Shown: positions 12,856 through 53,804 of the stretch, one piece after another
How positions within the stretch are numbered: the first letter of the stretch is position 1
Layout of the letters: the number at the start of each line of letters is the position of its first letter
NCBI RefSeq assembly: GCF_025791835.1
Contig: NZ_JAOXLP010000003.1
Location: 186,001-250,000 of the forward strand
DNA length: 64,000 bases
Origin: Roseomonas xinghualingensis
GTDB taxonomy: Bacteria > Pseudomonadota > Alphaproteobacteria > Acetobacterales > Acetobacteraceae
Reading direction: 5' to 3'
The notes under the pieces: model-generated
Databases searched by the model: none
What the model was told of the DNA's origin: nothing
The model's input: only the letters and a program-made list of their open reading frames with translations
Position numbers and translations under genes: made by a program

Positions 12856-14032
12856 AGCCCCCGTTCCCGGGGCCACGCGCTGGCGCGAGATCATTGCGCT
12901 GATCGCAGCCGGGATCGCGGCGGCAATTCAGCTCGGCAAGGTTGCGCCTTCGCTTCTCGCGATCGGCGAATCATTCGGGATTGGCCTGGAGGGGGCGGCC
13001 GGGCTCATCTCCGTCTTCTCACTCATGGCCGCAGTGGGCGGGTTGATGGCCGGGCTGCTGGCAGCCCGCACAGGGGCGCGCCGTTCCCTCCTGGTGGGGC
13101 TCTGGACCCTGGGGGGCGCCGGGCTGGCGGCGGCGGCCGCACCGTCGGTGGCCGTGCTCTATGCCGTGCGGTTGCTGGAGGGGGCGGCCTTCCTAGCGGT
13201 GGTGATCTCGGCCCCCACCCTCATCAACCGCCGCGCCGCGCCGGCGGATCGTGGCCTCGCCATGTCGGCCTGGGGCGTTTTCATGCCGGCTGGCGTGGCG
13301 CTCGGCGTCCTGGGCGCGCCGCTGGTGGAGGCGCAGGGCTGGCGTATCGCCTGGGCCGTGGCTGCCCTCATCCCCTTCGGCGCTGCCGTGCTGGTGGGCG
13401 CGCTGATGCCGCGCTGGGCCGCGCCACCCGTCCCGGCCTCATCAGGGCTTCCGGGGCAGGTCGCGAAGCTCTGGAGGGCGCGGTCTCCCTTTCTCGTGGC
13501 AGGCTGCTTCTCCTGCTACGCGGTTCTTTACTTCGGCCTGGCCGGCTTCCTGCCCGCGCGGCTGGTGCAGGGCTTCGGTCTTTCCCTTTCATCGGCCGGG
13601 CTGGCCGGGGCGGCGGCGGCCATCGCCAATATCGCGGGCAATCTCACCGCCGCTGTGCTCATCCGGCTGGGGTGGCATCCGGCGGCAATGCTGGGCTGGG
13701 CAGGGGCGGCGATGACCATCCTCACGGCTGCCGCCCTCGCGCTTCCTGTCTCGCCCACGCTTTCCATCGCGGCGGCGCTGCTCGCCTCGGCGCTGGGCGG
13801 GCTGATCCCGGCATCCCTCTTTGCCCTCGCGCCGCGCGCCGTGCCGGAGCCGGCGCTGGTGGGCCCGGGGCTTGGCCTGCTGGTGCAGTTCAACAATGTC
13901 GGGCAGGTGCTGGGGCCGATCGCCATTGCGGCGGCGGCCGGGCGGAGCTGGTCGCTTACGGCAATCCCGCTGCTGCTGGTGGGGGCCGCCTTGCTGGCCA
14001 TGGCGCCCAGGCTACGGCGCATAGACCAATAG
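12848..14032 (+). CDS. MFS transporter (CynX/NimT-like)
   Basis: 394 aa with about 12 hydrophobic segments and the MFS loop LLAARTGARRSLLVGLWTLGGAG. It starts inside the end of the permease gene, so it belongs to the same operon and may move a pathway product or an alternative substrate. The specific cargo is not readable from the sequence. Confidence 0.85.
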   Translation: MAEAPVPGATRWREIIALIAAGIAAAIQLGKVAPSLLAIGESFGIGLEGAAGLISVFSLMAAVGGLMAGLLAARTGARRSLLVGLWTLGGAGLAAAAAPSVAVLYAVRLLEGAAFLAVVISAPTLINRRAAPADRGLAMSAWGVFMPAGVALGVLGAPLVEAQGWRIAWAVAALIPFGAAVLVGALMPRWAAPPVPASSGLPGQVAKLWRARSPFLVAGCFSCYAVLYFGLAGFLPARLVQGFGLSLSSAGLAGAAAAIANIAGNLTAAVLIRLGWHPAAMLGWAGAAMTILTAAALALPVSPTLSIAAALLASALGGLIPASLFALAPRAVPEPALVGPGLGLLVQFNNVGQVLGPIAIAAAAGRSWSLTAIPLLLVGAALLAMAPRLRRIDQ

Positions 14033-36162: not shown

Positions 36163-36239
36163 CGGAGCGTAGCGCAGCCTGGTAGCGCATCAGTCTGGGG
36201 GACTGGGGGTCGTGGGTTCGAATCCCGCCGCTCCGACCA
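36163..36239 (+). tRNA. tRNA-Pro (GGG)
   Basis: 77 nt including encoded CCA. Acceptor CGGAGCG pairs with CGCTCCG; the D arm is GCGC..GCGC; the anticodon stem TCAGT/ACTGG encloses CTGGGGG, giving anticodon GGG at about 36197-36199; the T arm GTGGGTTCGAATCCCGC is intact. A tyrosine integrase gene starts 118 nt downstream, so the 3' end is the probable attL crossover. Confidence 0.97.
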
Positions 36240-36356: not shown

Positions 36357-37787
36357 GTGCGAATTACAAAGCGGGCATGCGAGGAACTGGCGAAAAGCCA
36401 GGCTTTCGAAAAGCGGACGGTCCACTGGGACCAGGAGCTTCGTGGATTCGGCCTACGGGTGAATGGCCCTGGGCGCCTTTCCTTCGTCCTGAAATACCGC
36501 GTTCGCGGCGATAAGCAGCAGCGATACTTCACCCTCGGCGACTGGCCGGCTGTGGCGCCCGATTCCGCTCGCCGTGAAGCAGCGACCATCAAGGTGGCCG
36601 CTGCACGCGGTCAGGATCTCATCGCCGAGCGGAGACTGGAGGCCGAGACAGCTGCCCAGGCGCGCAAGGAGGAGAAGCGGCGCGCGCTCCCTGTCTCAGA
36701 GCTGCTGGATGCCTGGCGTGCGGCGACCGAGGCGGAGATCGCCCGCAAGGCGGCTGAGGATCGGAGTGTCCTCTACGAGCGCGAGTTGCTCCGGCTTGAG
36801 GAGAAGATCCTGCGGCCGGCGATCGGCAAGGCGACGGTAGGCAGTCTGGACCCGCTATGCTTCCAGGCGCTGATCGAGGTGCAGACCTCTGTCAGCACCG
36901 CCCGGAACCTGCGGAACCTGCTCGTTCGCTTCATTCGGTTCACTCGGGCCCGCTTGGTGCTGCAGGGCATCACCGTGCACTGGCCGGCTTCGTTCGAGGT
37001 GGCTGCGCGGCCTGTCAGCCGCAGCTTCCGCTTCTCCCTGGAGGAGACCGCACGGATATGGATCGCCGCCGGTGCCCTGGGCCGGCGCGGCGCCCTTGTG
37101 CGCTTCATGTTGCTGACCGGATGCCGGCGGATCGAGGCGCAGAAGGTCCAGCGTGCCCATTTGGTGCTGAACGACCCGACGAATGGCCCCTATTGGGCTC
37201 AGCCCAGCCATCTGGTGAAGAACAGCCTCTTCCACCGCGTGCCGCTCTCAGGGCCGGCGGTTGCCCTTGTGTCCTGGCTCCCGGACCGGGGGATCGATCG
37301 GCACCGTGACGTATCGCCGCTGCTCTTTGCGGGGCGGGGAGGGAAGCTGGTTGGAGACTGGACTGTCATCCGCCGCGCCCTGCTGGAAGGGGCGGGACTG
37401 ACCCAGGGCACCCTGCACGACTTCCGGCGCACGATCGTCTCGACACTTGGTGACAATGGCTTCGACCCGCAGGTCGCGGACAGCCTGCTGAATCACGCGG
37501 CAGCCACCACAATGAGTGGGGTGATGAGCGTCTACCAGGTGTCGGAGTTCTGGAAGAAGAAGCGCCAAGCCATCGATCTCTGGACCCGGCTGCTGATGAA
37601 GGAGGTGGCTCGCCTGCAAGGGGTGAAGCCCCGGGATGTCTGGCGGTTTAGCGAGCCCTTCGAGGATGCACGAATCCGGCGCCCTGAGCGCGCAGGCACG
37701 AGGGCCCAAAAGCGCGCCCAGCGGCGGCGAGTTACTGCTGACGAGGAGCTGCCCGCCCCTTTGTTGCTGGCCTCAACTCTTCCCTGA
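36357..37787 (+). CDS. Tyrosine recombinase / phage integrase
   Basis: 476 aa, GTG start. The N-terminal DUF4102-like arm-binding domain (WDQELRGFGLRVN, LSFVLKYRVRGDKQQRYFTLGDW) places it in the P4/tRNA-targeting family. The catalytic residues are Arg257 (LTGCRRIEAQ), His354 and Arg357 (LHDFRRT), the HXXW-position His in LLNHAAATT, and Tyr393 (MSVYQVSEF). It would insert the phage into tRNA-Pro. The C-terminal ~70 residues are a basic extension. The last 56 nt overlap the opposite-strand excisionase-like gene. Confidence 0.93.
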   Translation: MRITKRACEELAKSQAFEKRTVHWDQELRGFGLRVNGPGRLSFVLKYRVRGDKQQRYFTLGDWPAVAPDSARREAATIKVAAARGQDLIAERRLEAETAAQARKEEKRRALPVSELLDAWRAATEAEIARKAAEDRSVLYERELLRLEEKILRPAIGKATVGSLDPLCFQALIEVQTSVSTARNLRNLLVRFIRFTRARLVLQGITVHWPASFEVAARPVSRSFRFSLEETARIWIAAGALGRRGALVRFMLLTGCRRIEAQKVQRAHLVLNDPTNGPYWAQPSHLVKNSLFHRVPLSGPAVALVSWLPDRGIDRHRDVSPLLFAGRGGKLVGDWTVIRRALLEGAGLTQGTLHDFRRTIVSTLGDNGFDPQVADSLLNHAAATTMSGVMSVYQVSEFWKKKRQAIDLWTRLLMKEVARLQGVKPRDVWRFSEPFEDARIRRPERAGTRAQKRAQRRRVTADEELPAPLLLASTLP

Positions 37788-41572: not shown

Positions 41573-42259
41573 TCAGAGCCAGTTCCAATGGCCAATTACC
41601 CTGCCAAAGATGCGAACTTCGTCGGCCGGGATCGTATAGGCTTCGTATGCAGGGTTATCGCTGCTGAAGCGGATCTTCGGCGGGTTTCCAGGAAGAGCCT
41701 GGAGGCGTTTGAACACCACCCCCATGCCGTTCCAGGCCAAATAGGTCCCGTCTGGCCCCAACCAGTTTTGGCTCACGTCAACCATCACTCGGTCCTGAGG
41801 CCGAAGAAGGGGAAGCATGCTGTCGCCCTGAACTCGAACAACCGCGACAGTTGCATGCCTATGCTCGGCGGGAAGAAAGTCCCGTGGGACTATCCACTCT
41901 GAAACTACTTCTGCACGACCTTGCCAATCGAGAACCGGTTCTGTGCCGTGTCCCGCTGCCCCATCAGCAATATACTCCTTCACAAGCATATATCCTGGTG
42001 GCGGCGGCTCTAATGTGACTGCCGCTCGCTGCGGCGGTAGCTTGGCGTGCTTGCCTGAAATCGGCTTACCGACGGCCGCGAGCAATTCCTCGGGCTCAAC
42101 GCCGAGTGGCTCCGCAAAGCGCTGCGCCCAGCTTTGGCTCAGCTTGCGCTTCCCCAAGACCAATTTGCTCAACGTGCTTGGGTCTGTGTCGGTCATGCGG
42201 GCCAGATCGGCCGCCTGAACACCCTTCACGTCGAGAATTTCCTGCAATCGAGTCGTCAT
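41573..42259 (-). CDS. CI/LexA-like phage repressor (XRE HTH + S24 peptidase)
   Basis: 228 aa from the ATG at 42259; the longer frame to 42562 crosses the operators and cro. The N-terminal HTH is TTRLQEILDVKGVQAADLARMTDTDPSTLSKLVLGKRKLS. The C-terminal S24 domain has nucleophile Ser147 (VQGDSMLPLLRPQDRVMVD) and Lys184 (GVVFKRLQALPG), so it should self-cleave with RecA after DNA damage and induce the prophage. No Shine-Dalgarno precedes the ATG, which follows an operator directly, so it may be leaderless as lambda cI is from PRM. Divergent from cro. Confidence 0.88.
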   Translation of the reverse strand: MTTRLQEILDVKGVQAADLARMTDTDPSTLSKLVLGKRKLSQSWAQRFAEPLGVEPEELLAAVGKPISGKHAKLPPQRAAVTLEPPPPGYMLVKEYIADGAAGHGTEPVLDWQGRAEVVSEWIVPRDFLPAEHRHATVAVVRVQGDSMLPLLRPQDRVMVDVSQNWLGPDGTYLAWNGMGVVFKRLQALPGNPPKIRFSSDNPAYEAYTIPADEVRIFGRVIGHWNWL

Positions 42260-42261
42260 GT

Positions 42262-42341
42262 GGCCACATTGGCCAAATGGCTCTTGCAGGTCAGCGGCCA
42301 AGTTGGCCTTGACCGAAGTGGCCATAATGGCCACTCTGGCC
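42262..42341. promoter_or_regulatory. Right operator: four GGCCANNNTGGCC palindromes
   Basis: Copies at 42262-42274, 42296-42308, 42320-42332 and 42329-42341, the last two sharing a GGCC. They fill the 84-bp gap between the repressor and cro start codons and touch both: 2 bp from each ATG. This is the expected place for an OR that controls both PRM- and PR-like promoters. Confidence 0.82.
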
Positions 42342-42343
42342 AC

Positions 42344-42556
42344 ATGACCCTCGATGAATTTCGGCGTGAGCGCCAATGGACCCTGGCCGATCTCGCACGC
42401 GAGCTCGGCCTCCATGATGCCCGAACGGTGCATCGATATCTCAACCATTCCCGAATTCCTCGACCAGCGGTCATGCGTCGCATCGTTGAGTTGTCCGGCG
42501 GGAAGGTGACGCCCTCTGATTTCTACGGCGCACCGTGCAAGGCGAGGCGTGCGTGA
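42344..42556 (+). CDS. Cro-like DNA-binding protein
   Basis: 70 aa from ATG 42344, directly after the last operator; the upstream in-frame extension would cross all the operators. MTLDEFRRERQWTLADLARELGLHDARTVHRYLNHSRIPRPAVMRRIVELSG is a Cro/YdaS-type helix-turn-helix. No Shine-Dalgarno is visible, so leaderless translation is possible. It is divergent from the repressor and should favour lytic growth. Confidence 0.75.
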   Translation: MTLDEFRRERQWTLADLARELGLHDARTVHRYLNHSRIPRPAVMRRIVELSGGKVTPSDFYGAPCKARRA

Positions 42557-42653
42557 TGTCATCCGTGGTTATCAGGTCGAGCACGGTTTTACCTTGCAAC
42601 GGATTCGCTTGTTGTGCAGCCGGAACCTCTCCGGATGATCACGAGATGTGCGC

Positions 42654-43232: not shown

Positions 43233-43591
43233 CCGCGGGGCCCTCCGCCGGCCCTCGAGGTCGACGAGCGGCCCCACCCCTCGCCCCTAACCGTATCGCT
43301 TTCGAAGCAATCAATCGGGCCGCACTGCCCGTGCTCGAGGAGCTTTGTGCCCGCTGGCTGCCCGGCGGGCGACGGGAGGGGGAGGAGTGGAAGTGCGGGG
43401 ACCTGGCCGGCAATCCCGGCCGCTCCTGCAGCGTGAACCTCCGCACCGGCAAATGGGCCGACTTCGCGGAGGGGCCTTCCGGCGGCGACGTGATCAGCCT
43501 CGCCGCCGCGATCTTCAATCTGAGCCAGGGCGAAGCCGCCCGGCGCATCGCCGACATGCTCGGCATCGACCTGGGAGGTCGCCATGTCTGA
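43229..43591 (+). CDS. Primase-like zinc-binding domain protein
   Basis: 120 aa, GTG start. EEWKCGDLAGNPGRSCSVNLRTGKWADFAEGPSGGDVISLAAAIFNLSQGEAARRIADML is the beta-hairpin/helix pattern of CHC2/primase N-terminal domains found ahead of DUF927 or TOPRIM-helicase proteins. The cysteine set is reduced, so zinc binding is uncertain. Overlaps the DUF927 gene by 8 nt; the two probably work as a split primase-helicase. Confidence 0.7.
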   Translation: MTAGPSAGPRGRRAAPPLAPNRIAFEAINRAALPVLEELCARWLPGGRREGEEWKCGDLAGNPGRSCSVNLRTGKWADFAEGPSGGDVISLAAAIFNLSQGEAARRIADMLGIDLGGRHV

Positions 43592-46151
43592 ACAGACTAC
43601 TTCGCTACCCGGCGGCCAAGACCCCTTCGCTCCGCCGAAGGGGATGAACGGCACTCATTATGAAGGCCTCGTCACGAAGACGGATCCGGAGGAGATCTGG
43701 GAGCCGTCCAAGCTGCCGCTGTCGGTTTCCGTGCCGGGACCGCGAGACCTGTACCATCCGGCCTTCGGCCCAGCGGTTGATGTCTGGCCGTATTTCGACC
43801 CCAAGGGGGCGCTGCTGTTCGTGGTCGCCCGCTTTGAGGGTGAGGTGGACGGCAAGAAGAAGAAGGACGTCGCGCCCTTCTGCCACGGCCGCCGCGTGTG
43901 GACCGACCGCAAGCACCGCCGCCAGGACCGCACCGGCTGGCACATGAAGGCGCCGCCGGCCCCGCGCCAGATCTTCAACCTGCACAAACTCACAGAGCGG
44001 CCGGACGCACCGGTGCTGGTGGTCGAGGGCGAGAAGACGGCCCAGGCTGCCGAGCTGCTCTTCCCGGACTTCGTGGTCGTCACCAGCCAGGGCGGCAGCA
44101 AGGCCGCGGCGCGCAGCGACTGGACCGTGCTTCATCGCCGGAAGGTCGTCGGCTGGCCGGACCGCGACGATCCCGGCCGGCGCTACATGAACGACGTGGC
44201 GGCGGCGGCTCGTCCCCCGAAGGGGCTCAGCAAGGCCGCCACCTTCGACATCGTGCAGGTGCCGACCGACTGGCCGGAGGGCTGGGACCTGGCGGATCCG
44301 CTGCCGCCCGGTGTTGGAGAGGACCTGCTGCAGGAGCTGCTGGAGGGGGCGATGGACGCCGACCCGCCGCAGCTGCCGCCGGGCTTCACGATGAGGGCCG
44401 AGGGGCTGTTCCACTATCCGGAGTCCGAGGAGGGAGAGCGCACCTTCATCTCGGCCCCGTTCGAGGTGGTCGGGGAGGCGAATGACGGCAACGGCATGAA
44501 CTGGGGCCTGTTGATCCGCTGGCTGGACCGGGACACCCGCCGTCACCAGTGGTCGGTACCGAAGCGCCTGGTGCATGCCGACGGCAACCGCATCGCCGAG
44601 GAGCTGGAGGATGCCGGCCTGCACTGCAACCCGAGCGGCAAGGCCCGGTCCCTCCTGAAGCAGTTCATCGGCGGTGTCCGCAGCAAGCGGCGCCTGATCT
44701 GCGTCGACCGGACCGGCTGGCACAACCCGAACGGGCGCAGCGTCTTCATCCTGCCGGGCGGCGAGGCCTTCGGGCCGGCGGCCAGCACCGTCATCCTGCA
44801 GACCGAGCACGCGGGGACCGACGGTGCCTTCATCGCCTCGGGCACGCTGCAGGAGTGGCAGGACCAGGTTGCCCGCTATGCGTCCGGCAATGACCGGATC
44901 GTCCTGGCGATCTGCACGGCCCTGGCGACACCGCTGCTGGACATCGTGGGCGGCGATAGCGGCGGGATCCACATCACCGGCGACAGCCAGACCGGCAAAT
45001 CCACCACGCTCTATGCGGCGGGAAGCGTCTGGGGGAAGGGAGCTCGCGGTGCCCAGGTCCGGCAGTGGCGGGCGACCGCGAACGGCCTGGAGGGGGCTGC
45101 GGCCGAGACCAGCGACACGGTCCTGATCCTGGACGAGATGGGGCAGGCCAGCGGCAGTGACGTGGCGGACACCATCTACATGCTGGCCAATGGCTCCGGG
45201 AAACTCCGGGCCGGGAAGGAGGGCGGATCCCGCCGGTCCAGGACCTGGCGCACGATGTTCCTCAGCACGGGCGAGATCACCCTGGCGGCCAAGATGGCCG
45301 AGGCCGGCCGCAAGATGATGGCCGGCCTGGAGGTGCGGCTGGTGAACCTGCCGGCGGACGCCGGGGCGGGGATGGGCGTCTTCCAGAAGCTGCACGGCAT
45401 GGCCGGCCCGGCCGAGCTCGCCAAGCACATCGCGACGGCCGCGAAGACGTCCTACGGCACGGCGGGCCGCCGCTTCCTCGGCCACCTCGTCCGGGCACGG
45501 ACGGCGGACCAGAAGAAGCTGGAGGCCCGGGTGAAGGCGGCCCAGGCCGAGTTCGCCAAGCGCTACCTGCCCGACAACGCCGCCGGCCAGGTCCGCAGCG
45601 TGGCCGACCGCTTCGCCCTGGTCGGTGCGGCAGGTGAGCTGGCCATCCAGTGGGGTGTTCTCCCCTGGGCCAAGGGCGAGGCCTCGGCCGCCGCAGCCGC
45701 GTGCTTCAAGACCTGGCTCGGGGAGCGGGGCGGGGCAGGGGCCACGGAGGACCATCAGGCTCTCAGCCAGGTGCAGGGCTTCATCGAGGCGCATGGCGAG
45801 AGCCGCTTCACGCCCCTCGTCCGCCAGGACGCCGATGGGTACCTGGAGGCCCCCCGGGCCGATGGTCAGCGGACCCAGAACCGCGTGGGCTGGCGGCGGC
45901 GGCCGGCTGGGGACAGCGAGGGGTGGGAGTACCTGATCATGCCCACCGCGTGGACCAACGAGGTCTGCAAGGGGCTGGATCCGAAGCGCGTGGCTGCGGT
46001 GCTGCGGCAGGCTAGTCTGCTGATCTGCGGCAGGGGCAAGGACCCCTCGATGACCGTGAAGGTGCCGGGCGAGGGCACCATCAGGGTCTATCGGGTGAGT
46101 GGCGCAATTTTAGGCATGCGCGAGACGATGGGCGAAGACGAGGCCGAGTAG
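43584..46151 (+). CDS. DUF927-domain phage replication protein (TOPRIM-like + helicase-like ATPase)
   Basis: 855 aa. Around residue 150 APVLVVEGEKTAQAAELLFPDFVVVTSQGGS is TOPRIM-like (primase). The DUF927 helicase part carries Walker A ITGDSQTGKST (Lys472), Walker B TVLILDEMGQASGSD and an arginine-rich sensor region (GSRRSRTWRTMFLST). Such proteins unwind and prime phage or plasmid origins. The stop is 21 nt before a dense iteron array, which is probably its origin. Confidence 0.85.
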   Translation: MSEQTTSLPGGQDPFAPPKGMNGTHYEGLVTKTDPEEIWEPSKLPLSVSVPGPRDLYHPAFGPAVDVWPYFDPKGALLFVVARFEGEVDGKKKKDVAPFCHGRRVWTDRKHRRQDRTGWHMKAPPAPRQIFNLHKLTERPDAPVLVVEGEKTAQAAELLFPDFVVVTSQGGSKAAARSDWTVLHRRKVVGWPDRDDPGRRYMNDVAAAARPPKGLSKAATFDIVQVPTDWPEGWDLADPLPPGVGEDLLQELLEGAMDADPPQLPPGFTMRAEGLFHYPESEEGERTFISAPFEVVGEANDGNGMNWGLLIRWLDRDTRRHQWSVPKRLVHADGNRIAEELEDAGLHCNPSGKARSLLKQFIGGVRSKRRLICVDRTGWHNPNGRSVFILPGGEAFGPAASTVILQTEHAGTDGAFIASGTLQEWQDQVARYASGNDRIVLAICTALATPLLDIVGGDSGGIHITGDSQTGKSTTLYAAGSVWGKGARGAQVRQWRATANGLEGAAAETSDTVLILDEMGQASGSDVADTIYMLANGSGKLRAGKEGGSRRSRTWRTMFLSTGEITLAAKMAEAGRKMMAGLEVRLVNLPADAGAGMGVFQKLHGMAGPAELAKHIATAAKTSYGTAGRRFLGHLVRARTADQKKLEARVKAAQAEFAKRYLPDNAAGQVRSVADRFALVGAAGELAIQWGVLPWAKGEASAAAAACFKTWLGERGGAGATEDHQALSQVQGFIEAHGESRFTPLVRQDADGYLEAPRADGQRTQNRVGWRRRPAGDSEGWEYLIMPTAWTNEVCKGLDPKRVAAVLRQASLLICGRGKDPSMTVKVPGEGTIRVYRVSGAILGMRETMGEDEAE

Positions 46152-46172
46152 AAACGAGGGGGCAAAAACAGC

Positions 46173-46358
46173 GTGTTACCGTGTTACTCTGTTACCGCGC
46201 TGTTTTTGCCCGAGAATTCGGTAACACGAAAGCCCGTGTTTCCTGTTACCGTGTTACCTCTGAGGGCGAAGAGGTAACACGGTAACACGCCAAGCGCCGG
46301 AGCGTGTTACCAAAAAGCGAAGCAAAATCAGCGTGGTAACAGAGTAACACGGTAACAC
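46173..46358. repeat. Iteron array of twelve GGTAACAC/GTGTTACC-type 8-mers, mirror-symmetric
   Basis: Copies (F = GTGTTACC sense, R = GGTAACAC): F at 46173, 46181, 46189; R at 46220; F at 46243, 46251; R at 46273, 46281; F at 46304; R at 46335, 46343, 46351. The order 3F-1R-2F-2R-1F-3R is a mirror image of itself. The centre is a perfect 18-bp inverted repeat (46244-46261 / 46270-46287) around an 8-nt spacer. Several copies differ by one base (46181, 46189, 46243, 46335, 46343). The left F cluster is itself enclosed by an inverted repeat ending in TGTTTTTGCCC. It follows the DUF927 gene, so a replication origin or partition/regulatory site is the likely role. The rest of the 595-nt gap (46152-46746) holds R1 and no gene I can support. 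Confidence 0.85.
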
Positions 46359-46549
46359 AGCGGATTTTCCCCCTCCTTCGCAACCGGGAAGACACACCAC
46401 CTCAGCTGCACAGAAAGTGGGCAACTTAGAAGTTCAAGCTTCCGTGAGTTCCGTGTAAGTTCTCCCAACGGCGCCGGGCGGGGGCCTGCCGCCTGAGGTG
46501 AAAGTGGATCAGCCCTTCAGCGCGCGCGGGAGCGCCTTTGTTCATGTTG

Positions 46550-46642
46550 CTTGCCCAGATTCCCCATTTTCCGGTAGGGCTGAACCTACGCTGAGGCGAG
46601 ATGCGCCCGGGGCTGCCATGGCCTCGGGCGCATTTGCGTTTC
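46550..46642 (+). repeat. ~90-bp repeated element, copy R1
   Basis: First of three related copies (R1, R2 at 50041, R3 at 52759). All begin CTTGC(C/G)CAGATTCCCCA, have GGTA at offset ~25 and CTG(A/T)GG at ~47, a GC hairpin starting at offset 53 and end CGTTTC. Here the hairpin is GCGCCCG (46603) with CGGGCGC (46625). The element lies upstream of the DUF6362-like gene and argues for the downstream start of that gene. Confidence 0.75.
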
Positions 46643-46746: not shown

Positions 46747-47607
46747 ATGTCCCGCACCCCGAGCCCCGCCCTGCGCGAGCTGCCCGAGGCCATCTATGAC
46801 GCCGAGGTGGTCGAGTTCCGCCTCCAGGATGCCGGCGCCACGCTGCTGGCGCTCCCCGGGCGCGGGTGCTTTCCCGCCGGTTACCGGACGAACTGGCCGC
46901 AGGTGGTGGTGGACGTCGCTGACGCCGCCCCCTTCCGGGAGGAGGACATCCCCATCCCGCCGCCGACGGCCAAACGCATCACCCAGATGGACGAGGCCTT
47001 CGGCTGGCTGCGGCTGCTGCCAGCCGACAAGGCGGAGCACCGCCGGATCATCCTGCTGCGCTCCCTGACCAGCCCCCGACATGGCCGCCACCTCCACAGC
47101 TGGCGGAAGATCGGGGAGATGCTGAGCCTGGAGCACCGGACGGTGCAGCGGCGCTTCGCCGAGGGCATCGGGTGGATAACGGCCGAGCTCTACAAGCAGC
47201 AGCTCGGCGGCGTGCAGTGGGCCTTCGACTGGCAGCGGCTGCGCCAGGTGGCCGGCTCGCTGAACCCGAAGACCCTGGTCCCGGAGGAGCCGCCAGTACC
47301 GGCCAGCTTGGCCCGGGCGCAGCTGCAGGGAGATGGCCCCATCCTGGTGAAGACGCCGGAGACCCGGGCGCTCGAGGTGGCCCGCTATGTCCAGCTGATG
47401 TCGAGCCGCTCCCGCGCCGCCCTGATGCACTTCCCGGCAGACGGGTCGGTTCGCCCCCTGGCAGGCGGCCGGGGCTTTGGGGAACGCGAGGTGGTGGTGC
47501 TGGAGATGGCCGGCCTCGTCGGCCGGGAAGGGGAGGACGGCCAGTTCCGGCTGACCTCCATCGGGATCCAGGCCCAGGGCATGATCCCGCGCGGTGTGGC
47601 GGTGTAG
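46747..47607 (+). CDS. DUF6362-like phage protein with helix-turn-helix
   Basis: 286 aa from ATG 46747; ATG 46618 or earlier starts are in frame but read through the R1 element and give low-complexity sequence. The middle part HRRIILLRSLTSPRHGRHLHSWRKIGEMLSLEHRTVQRRFAEGIGWI is a helix-turn-helix like those of DUF6362 phage proteins. The C-terminal part (LEVARYVQLMSSRSRAALMHFPADG) is helical. The role may be replication or packaging control; weakly supported. Confidence 0.65.
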   Translation: MSRTPSPALRELPEAIYDAEVVEFRLQDAGATLLALPGRGCFPAGYRTNWPQVVVDVADAAPFREEDIPIPPPTAKRITQMDEAFGWLRLLPADKAEHRRIILLRSLTSPRHGRHLHSWRKIGEMLSLEHRTVQRRFAEGIGWITAELYKQQLGGVQWAFDWQRLRQVAGSLNPKTLVPEEPPVPASLARAQLQGDGPILVKTPETRALEVARYVQLMSSRSRAALMHFPADGSVRPLAGGRGFGEREVVVLEMAGLVGREGEDGQFRLTSIGIQAQGMIPRGVAV

Positions 47608-47617
47608 GCTTGACCAA

Positions 47618-48364
47618 TCACTTCTTGCTGGCAGGAGCAGCTTTAATCGCTCTGCTATGGGCGCTACTTCCGGCTTTTCTCGCCGGCCGTGGCGCACTGG
47701 TGCCCCGCGCCTTGCCTGGGCTCCGCGCCTTTTTGGGACCGGCTCGAACCGCATCCTTCGGATCGAAGTAGAGCGCTACTGGAATATGCCGGACCATGTA
47801 AGATAGGCCTGATACTTCGTGGAGATGTGTGCTTCGGAATGCTAATGGGTTTGCTGTGCAAGTAATGGTTTGAATATCTGGACGTTGAGTGACGAGGTGC
47901 TGTTTCCAGCTGCTCATCATCTGCGCGACGCCTTGATTATAGCAGTAGATGATCAGCCCGCCTGCTTCCTGGCCAGGCATTCCACCGGAGTACCGCGTAC
48001 TGAGCTGCTGGAATCCTTTGTAAAGCCAATCATAGTCATGATGAGTCTTCGCCTCACCCAGCCATAGGAAATTCTCTCGACCTTCGACCACAACGTCGCA
48101 ATGCCCACCAATGTCAGTGTCGTGCGACGCCTGAAAGCCGATGTCCTTCAGCGACGTGACAATATCGTTCGTCAAAAGATCTTCATCTTTGTGCTGACGG
48201 TGATGTCGGGTGCGAGTGAGGTTCTGGGCGACATGATCAATCGCCTTTTCCACGGCCGTGACACGCTCCGCATGGCATGTAGCCATGAACATCTCCATGC
48301 GACACTGAAATGCCACATCTGGAAATGCCAACTTGAGTTCCTCAATCGTCCACTGCTTAGTCAT
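47618..48364 (-). CDS. Predicted PD-(D/E)XK-type nuclease, third gene of a cargo operon
   Basis: 248 aa. The nuclease core is DLLTNDIVTSLKDIGFQASHDTDIGGHCDVVVEGRENFLWLGEAK: Asp90, Glu104 and Lys106 with the right strand pattern, then HHDYDWLYKGFQQLSTRY. Residues 215-248 are a Lys/Ala/Pro-rich tail, probably disordered. The base composition is poorer in GC than the flanking phage genes. It overlaps the 140-aa gene by 8 nt. A role in phage defence or exclusion is inferred; I recognise no named system. Confidence 0.7.
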   Translation of the reverse strand: MTKQWTIEELKLAFPDVAFQCRMEMFMATCHAERVTAVEKAIDHVAQNLTRTRHHRQHKDEDLLTNDIVTSLKDIGFQASHDTDIGGHCDVVVEGRENFLWLGEAKTHHDYDWLYKGFQQLSTRYSGGMPGQEAGGLIIYCYNQGVAQMMSSWKQHLVTQRPDIQTITCTANPLAFRSTHLHEVSGLSYMVRHIPVALYFDPKDAVRAGPKKARSPGKARGTSAPRPARKAGSSAHSRAIKAAPASKK

Positions 48365-48779
48365 GCTGCGCGTCTACTATTCCTCGCAGCTTCGGCGATG
48401 GGACGAAGAACGGTACTAGGTGAGCCTCGTAGTTGCTGACCAGTTCGCCAGATACCGGGTGCACAAGTGTCCCAGACAGCTTGGCGTCGCGAAGATCTTC
48501 AGGGTCGATCTCGTGCTCTGCTTGGTTGTCATCAATGAACAAGGTGTGCGTGTCGAGTGCATGAATCTTCGAGCTGACGAGAATTGTGACTGCAGTCAGA
48601 AGATCGCCATCGGGTGCTCTCTTGCCCACCACGCGGCAAAGATTGCTGAAGGTGAGCATACGTACCTGCTCTGCAGGTAGCGAAGCGACAAAGTCGATGA
48701 TCTTTAAGCATAGCTTCGCCGCCGGAGCTGCTCCCCAGATGCGAGCTACCTCTGATTTAAGATCATCAACTGGCGGCAT
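48357..48779 (-). CDS. Unknown protein (140 aa), middle gene of the nuclease operon
   Basis: PPVDDLKSEVARIWGAAPAAKLCLKIIDFVASLPAEQVRMLTFSNLCRVVGKRAP is helical, followed by LLTAVTILVSSKIHALDTHTLFIDDNQ. Together they resemble a winged-helix outline but match no family I know. It overlaps the 375-aa gene by 14 nt and the nuclease gene by 8 nt, so the three are one transcription unit and likely one system. Confidence 0.65.
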   Translation of the reverse strand: MPPVDDLKSEVARIWGAAPAAKLCLKIIDFVASLPAEQVRMLTFSNLCRVVGKRAPDGDLLTAVTILVSSKIHALDTHTLFIDDNQAEHEIDPEDLRDAKLSGTLVHPVSGELVSNYEAHLVPFFVPSPKLRGIVDAQHD

Positions 48780-49893
48780 CTGCCGGCTCTAACGCATCCG
48801 CCGCTGTAATTGCAGCGAGGAAATGCTCCAGCCTGCCCCGAACGAAATTGAAATCGCGGCTTCCCGTGGCGTTACGCACCACTACTTCAAACAGGGTAGG
48901 GCGCTCTGAGTCCCGCTCCTTCTGAGAGCTCTGGAGACTTAACTCTGGTCTGGATGAGACCTCCTCCGTTAATGCTACGAACCACTGGATGCTGACCCTG
49001 AAGGGCTCAATTGGCGCCGCCAAGGCCTCCTTGCCTGCGCGGTGATAGATCTCCTGCCTCAGGCAGAGATTGTTACGCCGCATCCTCTCGTATTTGGTGC
49101 TGGCGGTAGTGGTGCCAAAGGCAAGCTCCACGACCGTTCCCTCATCGTCAGCTTCATACATGCCGCTGATAAGCGGAAAGAGGTTAAGTGGAGCGCTCAA
49201 TGCCTCGCGTTCAGCCAAGCTGTTGAAGGCTTGGCGGACTTGAGCGTGAGTGACTTGGGCTGCGGATCTCAACATGCCATCGGGGTAATCAACCCGCACG
49301 TCAACCAGATTGCCCTCGTACGGAAGATATACGACCTCGAAGGTCTGGCGCTTCTCCTGGCGAACGCCGAGCACTTGATCGTAGTCGGCAAGGGCCTCCC
49401 GAGCGGCGGGAGGGAGGTCCTCAGGATCGACCTCCTCCCTGAATGTCAGGCCGCGCGTTGCCGAGAACACGACAGCCAGTCCCTCGCCCGCCTCGATCAC
49501 TGCGACAAGCTGCAAGGGGGTCGGAAAATGCTCCTCAATCTCCGCCTCGGAGAGCCCTGCCGGGAAGCGGGCGGTGAACGCGTTGGGCTCGATATCTAGC
49601 GAAAGGAAATGGTCGATGAGAGCAGCCTTATCCTCGGTATCCATAAGGTAGAGACGGACTAGCTTCTCGCCACACAGCTGATGCTCAACGAGGGTCTGCT
49701 GGAGCGCAGTGGCCTGCTCTGCGTTCAGCGCATCTGGTGCGGCGAGTTTAGCGACGGTGAAGTCCCATCCCCTGCCACGGGGCAACCCGTCAGCCTGCAA
49801 TGCCTTCTGGGCAGGGATCCATGGCATCCGCTTTCGGAGCGTGCGAGCGATAGGCGCTACATTGAGAACGGGCTCTTGGTTCGACACTGTCAC
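48766..49893 (-). CDS. Unknown protein (375 aa), first gene of the nuclease operon
   Basis: GTG start at 49893 (TVSNQEPVLNVAPIARTLRKRMPWIP). The protein is largely mixed alpha/beta without motifs I recognise: LVAVIEAGEGLAVVFSATRGLTFREEVDPEDLPPA and FEVVYLPYEGNLVDVRVDYPDG are sheet-rich, and HFLAAITAADALEPAD is a short helix at the end. No Walker, HNH or membrane motifs. It could be a sensor or a partner of the nuclease. Confidence 0.68.
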   Translation of the reverse strand: MTVSNQEPVLNVAPIARTLRKRMPWIPAQKALQADGLPRGRGWDFTVAKLAAPDALNAEQATALQQTLVEHQLCGEKLVRLYLMDTEDKAALIDHFLSLDIEPNAFTARFPAGLSEAEIEEHFPTPLQLVAVIEAGEGLAVVFSATRGLTFREEVDPEDLPPAAREALADYDQVLGVRQEKRQTFEVVYLPYEGNLVDVRVDYPDGMLRSAAQVTHAQVRQAFNSLAEREALSAPLNLFPLISGMYEADDEGTVVELAFGTTTASTKYERMRRNNLCLRQEIYHRAGKEALAAPIEPFRVSIQWFVALTEEVSSRPELSLQSSQKERDSERPTLFEVVVRNATGSRDFNFVRGRLEHFLAAITAADALEPADAAS

Positions 49894-50040
49894 GCTTTGC
49901 CTGGCCTCGGAAGCCCACTGTTGCGGGAGGGTATCTACCTGATGTGTTCCGATCTGTCCCTTTTGATTCGCTCTAAGCAGGAATGAAGAAGGTCTTCATC
50001 ATTCTGCATGCTGAAATGATTACAGATTGTCCACTTTCTA

Positions 50041-50133
50041 CTTGCCCAGATTCCCCACTCTGAGGTAAGGGTATCGACACACTGAGGTGACGAGCGCCCG
50101 GGTGCCGGAAGGCACTGGGCGCTTCGTCGTTTC
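50041..50133 (+). repeat. ~90-bp repeated element, copy R2
   Basis: Second copy, 93 bp, same length as R1. Hairpin GCGCCC (50094) / GGGCGC (50117) with an inner GTGCC/GGCAC stem around a GGAA loop, then TTCGTCGTTTC. It lies ~150 bp upstream of the minus-strand nuclease operon. The stem sequences differ from R1 and R3 but pair, which indicates conserved structure. Confidence 0.75.
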
Positions 50134-51636: not shown

Positions 51637-52449
51637 TTATGAACCTAGAGCCTGGCTGATCGCCTTCTCAACGGGCGTCTGTTCACTCAGTGGTTTGGAC
51701 AGATCGAAGCCGCGACGTGGCAGAAGCGGCGGCTGCGCCATGAACTTCGGTCGCGTTCCACGGTGAGGCTGCGCCGCATGCACGAGGAAGGGGTGGCACA
51801 AATAAACCGTGCCCGCTTCCCCTGTCGCGAGAACCTCGGGCCTGCAGCTGGTGTCCGCAAAGCCGTCCCAGGCGAGGTCTCGTAAGGTCGCCCCGTCCTC
51901 GCCACAACACGCAAGCTTGCGCGCGATATCCTGATGTGAACCGACGCGGATACGCGTCGGTGCGTCGTCCTTTCCCACGTCGGAGAATAGGAAGAGCATG
52001 AGGAGCGCGCGTCCCCTTGAAGCGAGATTGGCCCGCCACGCCATGAAGTCGGATTGATCGTCGCCAGGCAGCGCGAAGCTCACGTCCACATGCCATCCAT
52101 CGTCCCCGGGCGCCTCCGCTGAAGGAAATCGGATCGGGAAGGTGCCAAGGCCGCCGGGAGGCAACCAGTTCCCGGCTCCCGCGAGTGCATCGTAAGCGGC
52201 GTGCAGGCGCGGGGTGTTGGCTGCATCACGGAAGACCTGATCCGCGTAGCCGCCGAGACGAATGACTGGCCTTGTCCAGCTCGATGGATCGTCCGGGTCG
52301 CAGCCTGTTTCACGCCACAGGATCGCGCGCCCCTGATCTGCTAGGGCTTGTGGAAAGGCATCATCAATCCGTACGAAGCCATTGATGACGAAGGCCTCTG
52401 TCTGCGCTGAGGTCAGCGCAGTGGTCGCATCGGGCATAGAGAATTCCAT
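51637..52449 (-). CDS. Phytanoyl-CoA dioxygenase (PhyH)-like Fe(II)/2-oxoglutarate oxygenase
   Basis: 270 aa. The facial triad is His120-X-Asp122 (GWHVDVSF) and a distal His in CHPFLVHAAQPHRGTRPK (His224, or His219); Arg233 would bind 2-oxoglutarate. It begins FVINGFVRIDDAFP, the normal PhyH start. Such enzymes hydroxylate small molecules; a few act on nucleotides or siderophores. It looks like cargo (a moron gene) because no phage function is evident. Confidence 0.8.
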   Translation of the reverse strand: MEFSMPDATTALTSAQTEAFVINGFVRIDDAFPQALADQGRAILWRETGCDPDDPSSWTRPVIRLGGYADQVFRDAANTPRLHAAYDALAGAGNWLPPGGLGTFPIRFPSAEAPGDDGWHVDVSFALPGDDQSDFMAWRANLASRGRALLMLFLFSDVGKDDAPTRIRVGSHQDIARKLACCGEDGATLRDLAWDGFADTSCRPEVLATGEAGTVYLCHPFLVHAAQPHRGTRPKFMAQPPLLPRRGFDLSKPLSEQTPVEKAISQALGS

Positions 52450-52758
52450 AGGTCCAGCTTGCCGCGACGTGCGCGGCGGAAGGGCGCTTGGCCCCGCTCG
52501 GCACTTCCCCTCGGAAGCACGCTAAGCGCGCAGGAAGATCGTGGACCTGAAGAACATCATGCGGAGGAGGATAGAAGTGTTTGCAGGCGACGGCAAGGAA
52601 GACGGAAGGGCGCGCTATCAACTGCTGCCTATGAACCGCTGGACGCTAACGTCTGCGTTGCGGGTGGCTGTATCACCATTCGGATGACCGAAATGGGCGC
52701 GAAGCTGACGACAGCAACGCCACCTAACGTTAGCAAGATTACCGGGCGCCAATTTGGC
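52450..52758. other. Gap upstream of the PhyH-like gene with no supported gene
   Basis: About 310 nt without a supportable gene on either strand. It precedes element R3. The promoter for the leftward PhyH-like gene should lie here, but I cannot point to boxes. Confidence 0.5.
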
Positions 52759-52848
52759 CTTGCGCAGATTCCCCAGTTTCAGGTACAGAAATCTCGAAAC
52801 TGTGGTGGATAGCGCCCGGGGCCTTGTGGCCCGGGCTTTTTTCGTTTC
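52759..52848 (+). repeat. ~90-bp repeated element, copy R3, ending in a strong terminator
   Basis: Third copy, 90 bp. The hairpin GCCCGGGGCC (52814) / GGCCCGGGC with loop TTGT is followed by TTTTTT, a textbook intrinsic terminator on the plus strand. No plus-strand gene precedes it, so the element may itself be a short transcript. The 200 nt that follow to the recombinase hold an imperfect inverted repeat (52946-52985). Confidence 0.75.
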
Positions 52849-53057: not shown

Positions 53058-53804
53058 ATGCCCCGCCCTCGGCTGAAGGCGCCCACACAGGGCGCAGCCG
53101 GCGGACCCCTCTTCGTCGCCTACTACCGTGTTTCGACCGACCAGCAGGGCCGCAGCGGCCTCGGGCTTGAGGCTCAGAAGGCGGCAGTGGCCGCTTTTCT
53201 CGCCTCTCAGCCGGCCGCGCGGCTCGCCGCCGAGTTCGAGGAGGTGGAGAGCGGGAAGCGGAACGACCGCCCGCAGCTCGCCGCTGCCCTCACTGCTTGC
53301 CGCGCCAGGCGCGCGGTCTTGGTCATCGCGAAGATTGATCGCTTGGCGCGCAACGCGCGGTTCCTTCTCTCCGTCGTGGAGGGTGTCGGCGATGCCGGCG
53401 TCGCCTTCTGCGACCTGCCCCAGATACCGCCCGGTCCGACCGGGAAGTTCCTGCTCACGCTGCTGGCCGCCGTGGCTGAGCTAGAGGCTGGGCTTATCAG
53501 CCAGCGCACCAAGGCGGCGTTAGCTGCTGCGAAGGCGCGAGGCGTGAAGCTCGGAGGTCCCCGGAACTGCCCCGGCCTCGATACCGCGCTCACCAAGCGC
53601 GCCCGAGCCGCCCGAACGGCCATTGCAGCAGCCTATCACGTCGACGTCTGGCCCTACATCGAAGCGGCCCAGCGCGCCGGCGCCACCAGCCTCCGCCAGA
53701 TCGCGGAGGCGCTCACCGCCCGCGGCGTCCGCCCGCCCTCTGGGGGCGAGGTCTGGCACGCGAAGCAGGTCTCGCGCCTGCTCCAGCAGAGGAAAGCCGC
53801 CTGA
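53058..53804 (+). CDS. Serine recombinase (resolvase/invertase family)
   Basis: 248 aa. Catalytic Ser26 is in YYRVSTDQQGRSG; the resolvase core continues through LVIAKIDRLARNARFL and LLTLLAAVAELEAGLISQRTKAAL. A C-terminal Hin-like helix-turn-helix domain follows (GATSLRQIAEALTARGVRPP...VSRLLQQRK). The phage already has a tyrosine integrase, so this may act on a second site (cargo or host-range inversion, dimer resolution). It overlaps the next gene by one base and begins the rightward late block. Confidence 0.9.
   Translation: MPRPRLKAPTQGAAGGPLFVAYYRVSTDQQGRSGLGLEAQKAAVAAFLASQPAARLAAEFEEVESGKRNDRPQLAAALTACRARRAVLVIAKIDRLARNARFLLSVVEGVGDAGVAFCDLPQIPPGPTGKFLLTLLAAVAELEAGLISQRTKAALAAAKARGVKLGGPRNCPGLDTALTKRARAARTAIAAAYHVDVWPYIEAAQRAGATSLRQIAEALTARGVRPPSGGEVWHAKQVSRLLQQRKAA

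What the first reader, a model, noticed from the sequence alone, without database searches (positions are those of the whole stretch)
47618..49893. Unrecognised three-gene nuclease operon in prophage cargo position
Three overlapping minus-strand genes (375, 140 and 248 aa) form one unit. The last has a PD-(D/E)XK-like core (Asp90, Glu104, Lys106); the other two match nothing I know. The base composition is lower in GC than the phage genes around them, the strand is opposite to the flanking phage genes, and elements R1 and R2 lie on either side. A prophage locus with overlapping unknown genes plus a nuclease is the classic look of an anti-phage system. Seen: overlaps, motif, strand, composition. 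Inferred: defence.
Basis: partly seen in the sequence, partly recalled or inferred. Interest (0 to 1): 0.75.

Follow-up and report, generated by a model that had tools for sequence, protein, structure and literature searches.

The report
Three-gene mobile nuclease defence cassette
A prophage carries three overlapping genes, found together in other phages, plasmids and chromosomes, that look like an immune device against other phages: a DNA-clamp-like sensor, a small adaptor and a DNA-cutting enzyme.

Summary
In detail: three intact minus-strand ORFs (A 375 aa, B 140 aa, C 248 aa) overlap by 14 and 8 bp, have low GC, and sit in a prophage between two copies of a 72-nt repeat. They form a conserved cassette: 93 of 99 loci fetched through C (two known duplicates removed) keep order A-B-C on one strand. 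Among 398 Pseudomonadota genomes, the window's own included, every A found (5 of 5) and every B found (7 of 7) lies beside C. C is a PD-(D/E)XK nuclease: D90, E104, K106 are present in 90 of 90 relatives, and the confident model matches OkrAI/BamHI. A's model (pLDDT 95) resembles the DNA-ring protein RdgC, the fold of lambda's exclusion protein RexA. A is replaceable: elsewhere B is fused to HsdR or a type ISP restriction enzyme, probably to an S3-like protein, and C to a NACHT-HEAT receptor. 25 of 67 viral copies lie beside a P2-type portal, the known P2 defence hotspot. A same-genus prophage lacks the cassette. Best reading: sensor + adaptor + nuclease anti-phage system. Untested: activity, trigger, and whether it equals the P1-blocking three-gene system of Rousset et al. 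2022.

The parts
48766..49893 (-). Gene A, 375 aa (GTG start): RdgC-like protein; N-terminal helical domain (about 1-75) plus RdgC-like core (about 76-365); proposed sensor / DNA clamp
   Evidence: phrog_12777, 3.9e-49; pLDDT 95.3
48357..48779 (-). Gene B, 140 aa: adaptor; in other loci fused to the C-terminus of HsdR and of a type ISP enzyme, more weakly to an S3-like protein
   Evidence: (phrog_11490, 2.4e-21)
47618..48364 (-). Gene C, 248 aa: PD-(D/E)XK nuclease (E61, D90, E104, K106, Q120, R124); proposed effector; low-confidence C-terminal tail (about 208-248)
   Evidence: (phrog_9664, 2.1e-52)
46540..46611 (+). Repeat copy R1, upstream of the likely start of the DUF6362 gene; also present in the operon-free relative, so not an operon boundary
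50031..50102 (+). Repeat copy R2, about 140 bp upstream of gene A; in the operon-free relative it directly follows the DUF6362 stop codon

Best explanation
A compact anti-phage defence cassette carried as prophage cargo. Shown: three conserved overlapping genes that occur together; C has the PD-(D/E)XK core with an invariant active site; A's predicted fold is RdgC-like; B is a separable module; the cassette is absent from the same place in a related prophage. Inferred mechanism: A, probably as a dimeric clamp, engages phage DNA or a replication/recombination intermediate made during infection. B links A to C. On engagement C is licensed to cut DNA, either the invader's or, abortively, all DNA in the cell. 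Other loci replace A by a different DNA-engaging or infection-sensing protein (type I HsdR, type ISP enzyme, NACHT-HEAT receptor), as expected of a sensor + adaptor + effector design.
Against: No activity was tested. A has no sequence-level similarity to RdgC or RexA (hhalign probability 0.2 and 0.1); Foldseek TM-scores are low (0.33/0.39) and rmsd is large, so the domains are arranged differently. A is acidic (pI 4.9; family median 6.1), which does not by itself favour DNA binding. C has no Foldseek hit below 1e-3 (best 1.2e-2). No structure was predicted for B or for any complex. The A and B profiles were built in part from loci found through C, which favours co-occurring copies. Flanking genes of chromosomal/plasmid copies show only scattered known defence genes (each family shown matches 1 of 129 proteins; 25 of 110 families shown), with no control set run. 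The S3 fusion rests on one 3.3-kb contig and a partial B match (E 3e-7).
Confidence: 0.72

Rival explanations
1. It is the already validated 'three genes with no clear predicted domain' system of the P2 hotspot (Rousset et al. 2022, protects against P1; the name Rst_3HP in DefenseFinder is, as I recall, this system), so the system is known by function and only its anatomy is new.
For: Same kind of place for the relatives (gpA-gpQ interval), same gene number, no Pfam domain, Rst_3HP mostly on prophages. Rst_3HP is reported from Vibrio europaeus, and A-B-C also occurs in Vibrio species. E. coli P2-like prophages do carry A-B-C: 28 of 5426 genomes.
Against: No sequence of that system was seen: its accessions are in supplementary tables that could not be read. 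PADLOC 2.0.0 finds nothing in either E. coli subtype at E up to 10 apart from one spurious Cas9 row (E 0.25); I recall, without a call, that PADLOC lists a 3HP system, which would speak against identity.
Confidence: 0.35
2. A phage recombination or replication module: an RdgC-like protein plus a nuclease serving the prophage's own DNA metabolism, not defence.
For: RdgC acts in recombination; phages encode RdgC-like proteins, and one viral structural match is named exonuclease. The operon lies near the primase gene.
Against: Different GC, convergent with the DUF6362 gene, absent from the closest relative prophage, present on plasmids and bacterial chromosomes, and B or C fused to restriction enzymes and a NACHT protein.
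Confidence: 0.1
3. A toxin-antitoxin or plasmid-addiction unit: C is a DNA-cutting toxin, B (with A) the antitoxin.
For: B and C overlap as toxin-antitoxin pairs do; the cassette occurs on small plasmids such as a 6.1-kb Klebsiella plasmid; B is acidic.
Against: An antitoxin would not be expected as a C-terminal fusion to HsdR and type ISP motors; C also occurs fused to NACHT-HEAT without B. The two ideas are not exclusive: some defence systems behave as toxin-antitoxin pairs (established knowledge).
Confidence: 0.15
4. C is a site-specific or modification-dependent restriction enzyme and A-B set its specificity, so it is an unusual restriction system without a methylase.
For: C's best structural neighbours are the type II enzymes OkrAI, BamHI, BglII, and McrC, the nuclease of a modification-dependent system. 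B is fused to type I and type ISP enzymes.
Confidence: 0.2

Closest known systems
E. coli RdgC (PF04381; PDB 2owl, 2owy)
   Different: No sequence similarity; A has an extra N-terminal helical domain and sits in a nuclease operon; ring formation untested
Lambda RexA / RexAB exclusion system
   Same: RexA is an RdgC-fold, DNA-binding prophage exclusion protein (PMC11077077, abstract and passages seen); A shares the RdgC fold
   Different: A has no detectable sequence similarity to RexA; RexB is a membrane protein, here the partners are B and a nuclease
Three-gene P2-hotspot system of Rousset et al. 2022 (Rst_3HP)
   Same: Three genes without clear predicted domains between gpA and gpQ of P2-like prophages, protects against P1 (PMC9122126, section 10 read)
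   Different: Homology could not be tested; its anatomy was not described in the parts read
BamHI/OkrAI, McrC, NucC, Can2/Card1 PD-(D/E)XK nucleases
   Same: Fold and catalytic residues of C
   Different: Only 6-17% identity in the structural alignments
Type I HsdR and type ISP restriction enzymes
   Same: In L080 and L173 the B domain is their C-terminal extension and C is the next gene
   Different: The window's cassette has no motor, methylase or specificity subunit
Bacterial NACHT defence proteins
   Same: In L085 C is the C-terminal domain of a NACHT-HEAT protein
   Different: The window's cassette has no recognised NTPase
Kinetochore protein CENP-N/Chl4

Membership tests
PD-(D/E)XK nuclease superfamily (C) | Catalytic D...E-x-K (with upstream E and downstream Q) conserved | tested here: met
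   E61, D90, E104, K106, Q120 in 90 of 90
PD-(D/E)XK nuclease superfamily (C) | Characteristic alpha-beta core fold | tested here: met
PD-(D/E)XK nuclease superfamily (C) | Metal-dependent DNA cleavage | not testable with these tools
   needs biochemistry
RdgC family PF04381 (A) | Sequence match to the family profile | tested here: not met
   No Pfam match at E up to 1; hhalign against 23 RdgC proteins probability 0.2
RdgC family PF04381 (A) | RdgC fold | tested here: met
   domain placement differs (low TM, large rmsd)
RdgC family PF04381 (A) | Ring-shaped dimer binding DNA | not testable with these tools
   no complex prediction or biochemistry
RexAB system | RexA homologue | tested here: inconclusive
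   hhalign to the single lambda RexA sequence probability 0.1; RexA not among the 50 structural rows shown, which excludes nothing
RexAB system | Partner gene is the RexB membrane protein | tested here: not met
   The only partners in the operon are B (phrog_11490) and the nuclease C; no transmembrane prediction was run on B
Rst_3HP (Rousset et al. 2022) | Three genes in the gpA-gpQ interval of P2-like prophages without known domains | tested here: met
   Met for relatives L003, L180, L181, between replication genes and portal, all 'hypothetical protein'; the window's own copy is in another type of prophage
Rst_3HP (Rousset et al. 2022) | Homologous proteins | not testable with these tools
   Its accessions are in supplements that cannot be read here; PADLOC search negative
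Any PADLOC-DB 2.0.0 system | Profile match of A, B or C | tested here: not met
   0 families at E up to 1 for the window's proteins; four A and two C of relatives L002, L003, L008, L009: none at 0.01
Type I / type ISP restriction-modification | Motor plus methylase plus specificity domains | tested here: not met
   No such domain in A, B or C; present in the partner-change loci L080 and L173

The most novel reading that the evidence does not exclude
B and C form a plug-in nuclease module that evolution couples to different infection sensors: an RdgC/RexA-like DNA clamp (A), type I and type ISP restriction motors, an S3-like ribosomal-protein decoy, and (C alone) a NACHT-HEAT receptor. A would be a new class of immune sensor, watching DNA-replication or recombination intermediates, whose helical N-terminus plus RdgC-like core parallels kinetochore CENP-N.
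Probability: 0.35. Interest if true: 0.85.

Novelty: new variant of a known kind. Interest (0 to 1): 0.7.

Why it matters
If true, a compact cassette, present in about 0.5% of complete E. coli genomes (28 of 5426) and in phages, plasmids and chromosomes of Pseudomonadota and cyanobacteria, ties together two open threads: how RexA/RdgC-fold proteins take part in phage exclusion, and how one nuclease module can be coupled to very different sensors. It gives a testable sensor-adaptor-effector model, and natural fusions that show which parts touch.

Tried and rejected
Pfam, NCBIfam and PADLOC gave nothing convincing for A, B, C; PDB sequence searches gave no row for C alone or for the A and B profiles, and for the C profile only designed helical proteins and similar noise. 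Profile comparison of A with 23 RdgC proteins and with lambda RexA showed no sequence relation, so A is called RdgC-like by fold only. No RdgC gene was found in 20 genomes of the window's family. Scans of viral contigs with the window's A or B alone, as single sequences, found no relative. The class-level search found C in no genome besides the window's own (1 of 385), against 8 of 398 for the phylum draw, two of these in the same class; the two draws differ. Promoter and terminator scans showed nothing above shuffles; no Rfam family at gathering score besides the tRNA. No exact 18-mer of the tRNA-Pro recurs in the window, so the right attachment site was not found in it. R1/R2 as operon boundaries: rejected, since the operon-free relative has both. 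Literature: six accession numbers of relatives occur in no held paper. Beyond listings I saw: passages of PMC11077077 (and its abstract), PMC12894663, PMC9090908, PMC13249269, PMC12629846, and section 10 plus passages of PMC9122126. One search was swamped by unrelated 'HP1' papers.

Full report
WHAT IS THERE. The three minus-strand ORFs are at the stated coordinates, A 48766-49893 (375 aa, GTG), B 48357-48779 (140 aa), C 47618-48364 (248 aa), overlapping by 14 and 8 bp. The public protein set holds A as a 353-residue protein (P0123), a length that fits a start at Met23; residue R22 is nearly invariant in the family, which favours the GTG start. GC is 0.54-0.59 against 0.70-0.72 in the primase, DUF6362 and recombinase genes, and third-position GC 0.57-0.68 against 0.83-0.90. 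The surroundings are a prophage: integrase 36357-37787 next to tRNA-Pro 36163-36239, CI-like repressor 41573-42562, DUF927 primase 43584-46151, DUF6362 gene ending at 47607, serine recombinase 53058-53804, terminase subunits, portal, protease and major head protein to 63771.

A CONSERVED CASSETTE. Each protein matches a PHROG family of unknown function (phrog_12777, 11490, 9664). The same order A-B-C occurs in an Acinetobacter phage record, a P2-like element in a Klebsiella phage record, a Moraxella phage where it is not annotated, and plasmids of Pseudomonas, Calothrix, Enterobacter, Vibrio and Klebsiella, with different neighbours. Viral and genome scans brought 67 and 24 loci. Of 101 locus files, all found through C, 95 hold all three on one strand with small gaps. 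L077 repeats the window (L001) and L089 repeats L006, so this is 93 of 99. The six exceptions: L056 and L057 are cut by the contig end; L072 and L101 have an ORF of 161 and 154 aa in B's place that the B profile misses; L080 and L085 are the partner changes below. There are 85 distinct C proteins, so the loci are partly redundant. Reciprocal test in 398 Pseudomonadota genomes, own included: C in 8, B in 7, A in 5; each B and each A is beside C. One of the eight C matches (G521, E 2.6e-7) is a distant 408-residue protein without A or B. The A and B profiles came in part from loci found through C.

PATCHY AND MOBILE. None of the 99 other genomes in the relatives search has C, nor any of 384 others in the class draw. 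In a same-genus genome (L125) a collinear prophage, 75% identical in DNA over the primase gene and 95% in the recombinase protein, has the DUF6362 stop at 13569 and repeat R2 with its core at 13593, where the window has 2.4 kb with A-B-C between. E. coli carries matching DNA in 28 of 5426 complete genomes in each of two searches, with 6 and 21 of them covering at least 80% of the query; the two examples opened lie between replication endonuclease and portal genes. A P2-type portal gene lies 8-141 bp beyond C, convergent, in 27 of 101 loci, 25 of the 67 viral ones (one is the source of the query). Rousset et al. describe this gpA-gpQ interval as a hotspot of anti-phage systems (PMC9122126, section 10 read).

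GENE B AND THE PARTNER CHANGES. B has no convincing match outside its own family. Its role shows in other loci. In L080 (Sphingopyxis metagenome-assembled genome) B is the C-terminus (residues 1034-1165, E 7e-19) of a type I HsdR that follows HsdS, and C is the next gene. In L173 B is the C-terminus (1634-1761, E 3e-20) of a 1764-residue type ISP enzyme (Type_ISP_C E 8e-98, ISP_coupler, Mrr_cat_2, helicase and methylase domains), again followed by C. In L176, a 3.3-kb contig, a partial B (E 3e-7) ends a ribosomal-S3-like protein, followed by C. In L085 (Microcoleus metagenome-assembled genome) C is the C-terminal domain of a NACHT-HEAT protein without B. The B profile held none of these fusions; of 2100 shuffled tails none reached 1e-3 (best 4.5e-3). 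I read B as the adaptor between a DNA-engaging or sensing protein and C. From its sequence pattern I suspect a winged-helix fold, but no structure was predicted.

HOW IT MOST LIKELY WORKS. A senses an infection-specific DNA state as an RdgC-like clamp, B couples it to C, C cuts DNA. The composition, the mobility, the hotspot position of relatives and the exchange of A for restriction motors or a NACHT receptor support defence strongly; the trigger and the choice between cutting phage DNA and killing the cell are inference. Against: A's acidity, absence of any assay, and scattered rather than dense defence neighbours: among 129 flanking proteins of chromosomal and plasmid copies the PADLOC matches include Drt2, PDC-S36, AbiEii, HNH, GajB-like helicase and type I methylase, each family matching one protein (only the first 25 of 110 families are shown, no control set; the methylase is probably L080's own).

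WHAT IS KNOWN. Rousset et al. [quoted passage not shown] DefenseFinder's Rst_3HP (named in PMC9090908, as mostly on prophages) is, as I recall, that system. It may be this family. PADLOC 2.0.0 does not recognise the E. coli copies, but I could not confirm that it contains 3HP models. If it is the same, defence is already shown and the new parts are the fold of A, the nuclease identity of C and the exchangeable partners.

THE REPEATS. R1, R2 and R3 share a 16-nt core found three times in the genome. R3 stands about 240 bp before the serine recombinase gene. R3 and the PhyH gene are both missing from the fetched stretch of L125, which has other ORFs between R2 and the recombinase. They could be recombination sites at which cargo is exchanged; this was only partly followed.

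Noticed in passing
window 46540-46611, 50031-50102, 52749-52820; serine recombinase 53058-53804: Three same-strand copies of a 72-nt repeat, unique to this spot in the genome; the cargo beside them (A-B-C; a PhyH-type dioxygenase gene) differs from the related prophage. Possible recombination sites of the serine recombinase for cargo exchange.
   Followed up: partly
L173:2990-8913: Type ISP restriction enzyme with B fused to its C-terminus, followed by C.
   Followed up: yes
L176:96-1804 (minus strand): Ribosomal protein S3-like protein (KH_2 and S3_C domains) with a partial B domain, followed by C: a possible decoy sensor.
   Followed up: partly
L179:5627-9012: A 408-aa protein with a distant C-like domain (C profile E 3e-10) between a PIN-domain gene and a TIR (CAP12/Pycsar-type) gene, no A or B: perhaps another defence locus.
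   Followed up: partly
window 46153-46378: Dense GTAACAC direct and inverted repeats, including a 57-nt inverted pair, between the primase and DUF6362 genes; perhaps a phage origin or control region.
   Followed up: no
window 51637-52449: PhyH-type dioxygenase gene as prophage cargo between R2 and R3.
   Followed up: no
L003 (OM835953.1): Record of Klebsiella phage KP12, filed under Vequintavirinae, holds P2-type genes; its A-B-C stretch is 99% identical to E. coli P2-like prophages, so this contig may be host prophage DNA.
   Followed up: partly
L004:2383-4510 (KR093637.1): Complete A-B-C operon in Moraxella phage Mcat13 left without annotation.
   Followed up: yes
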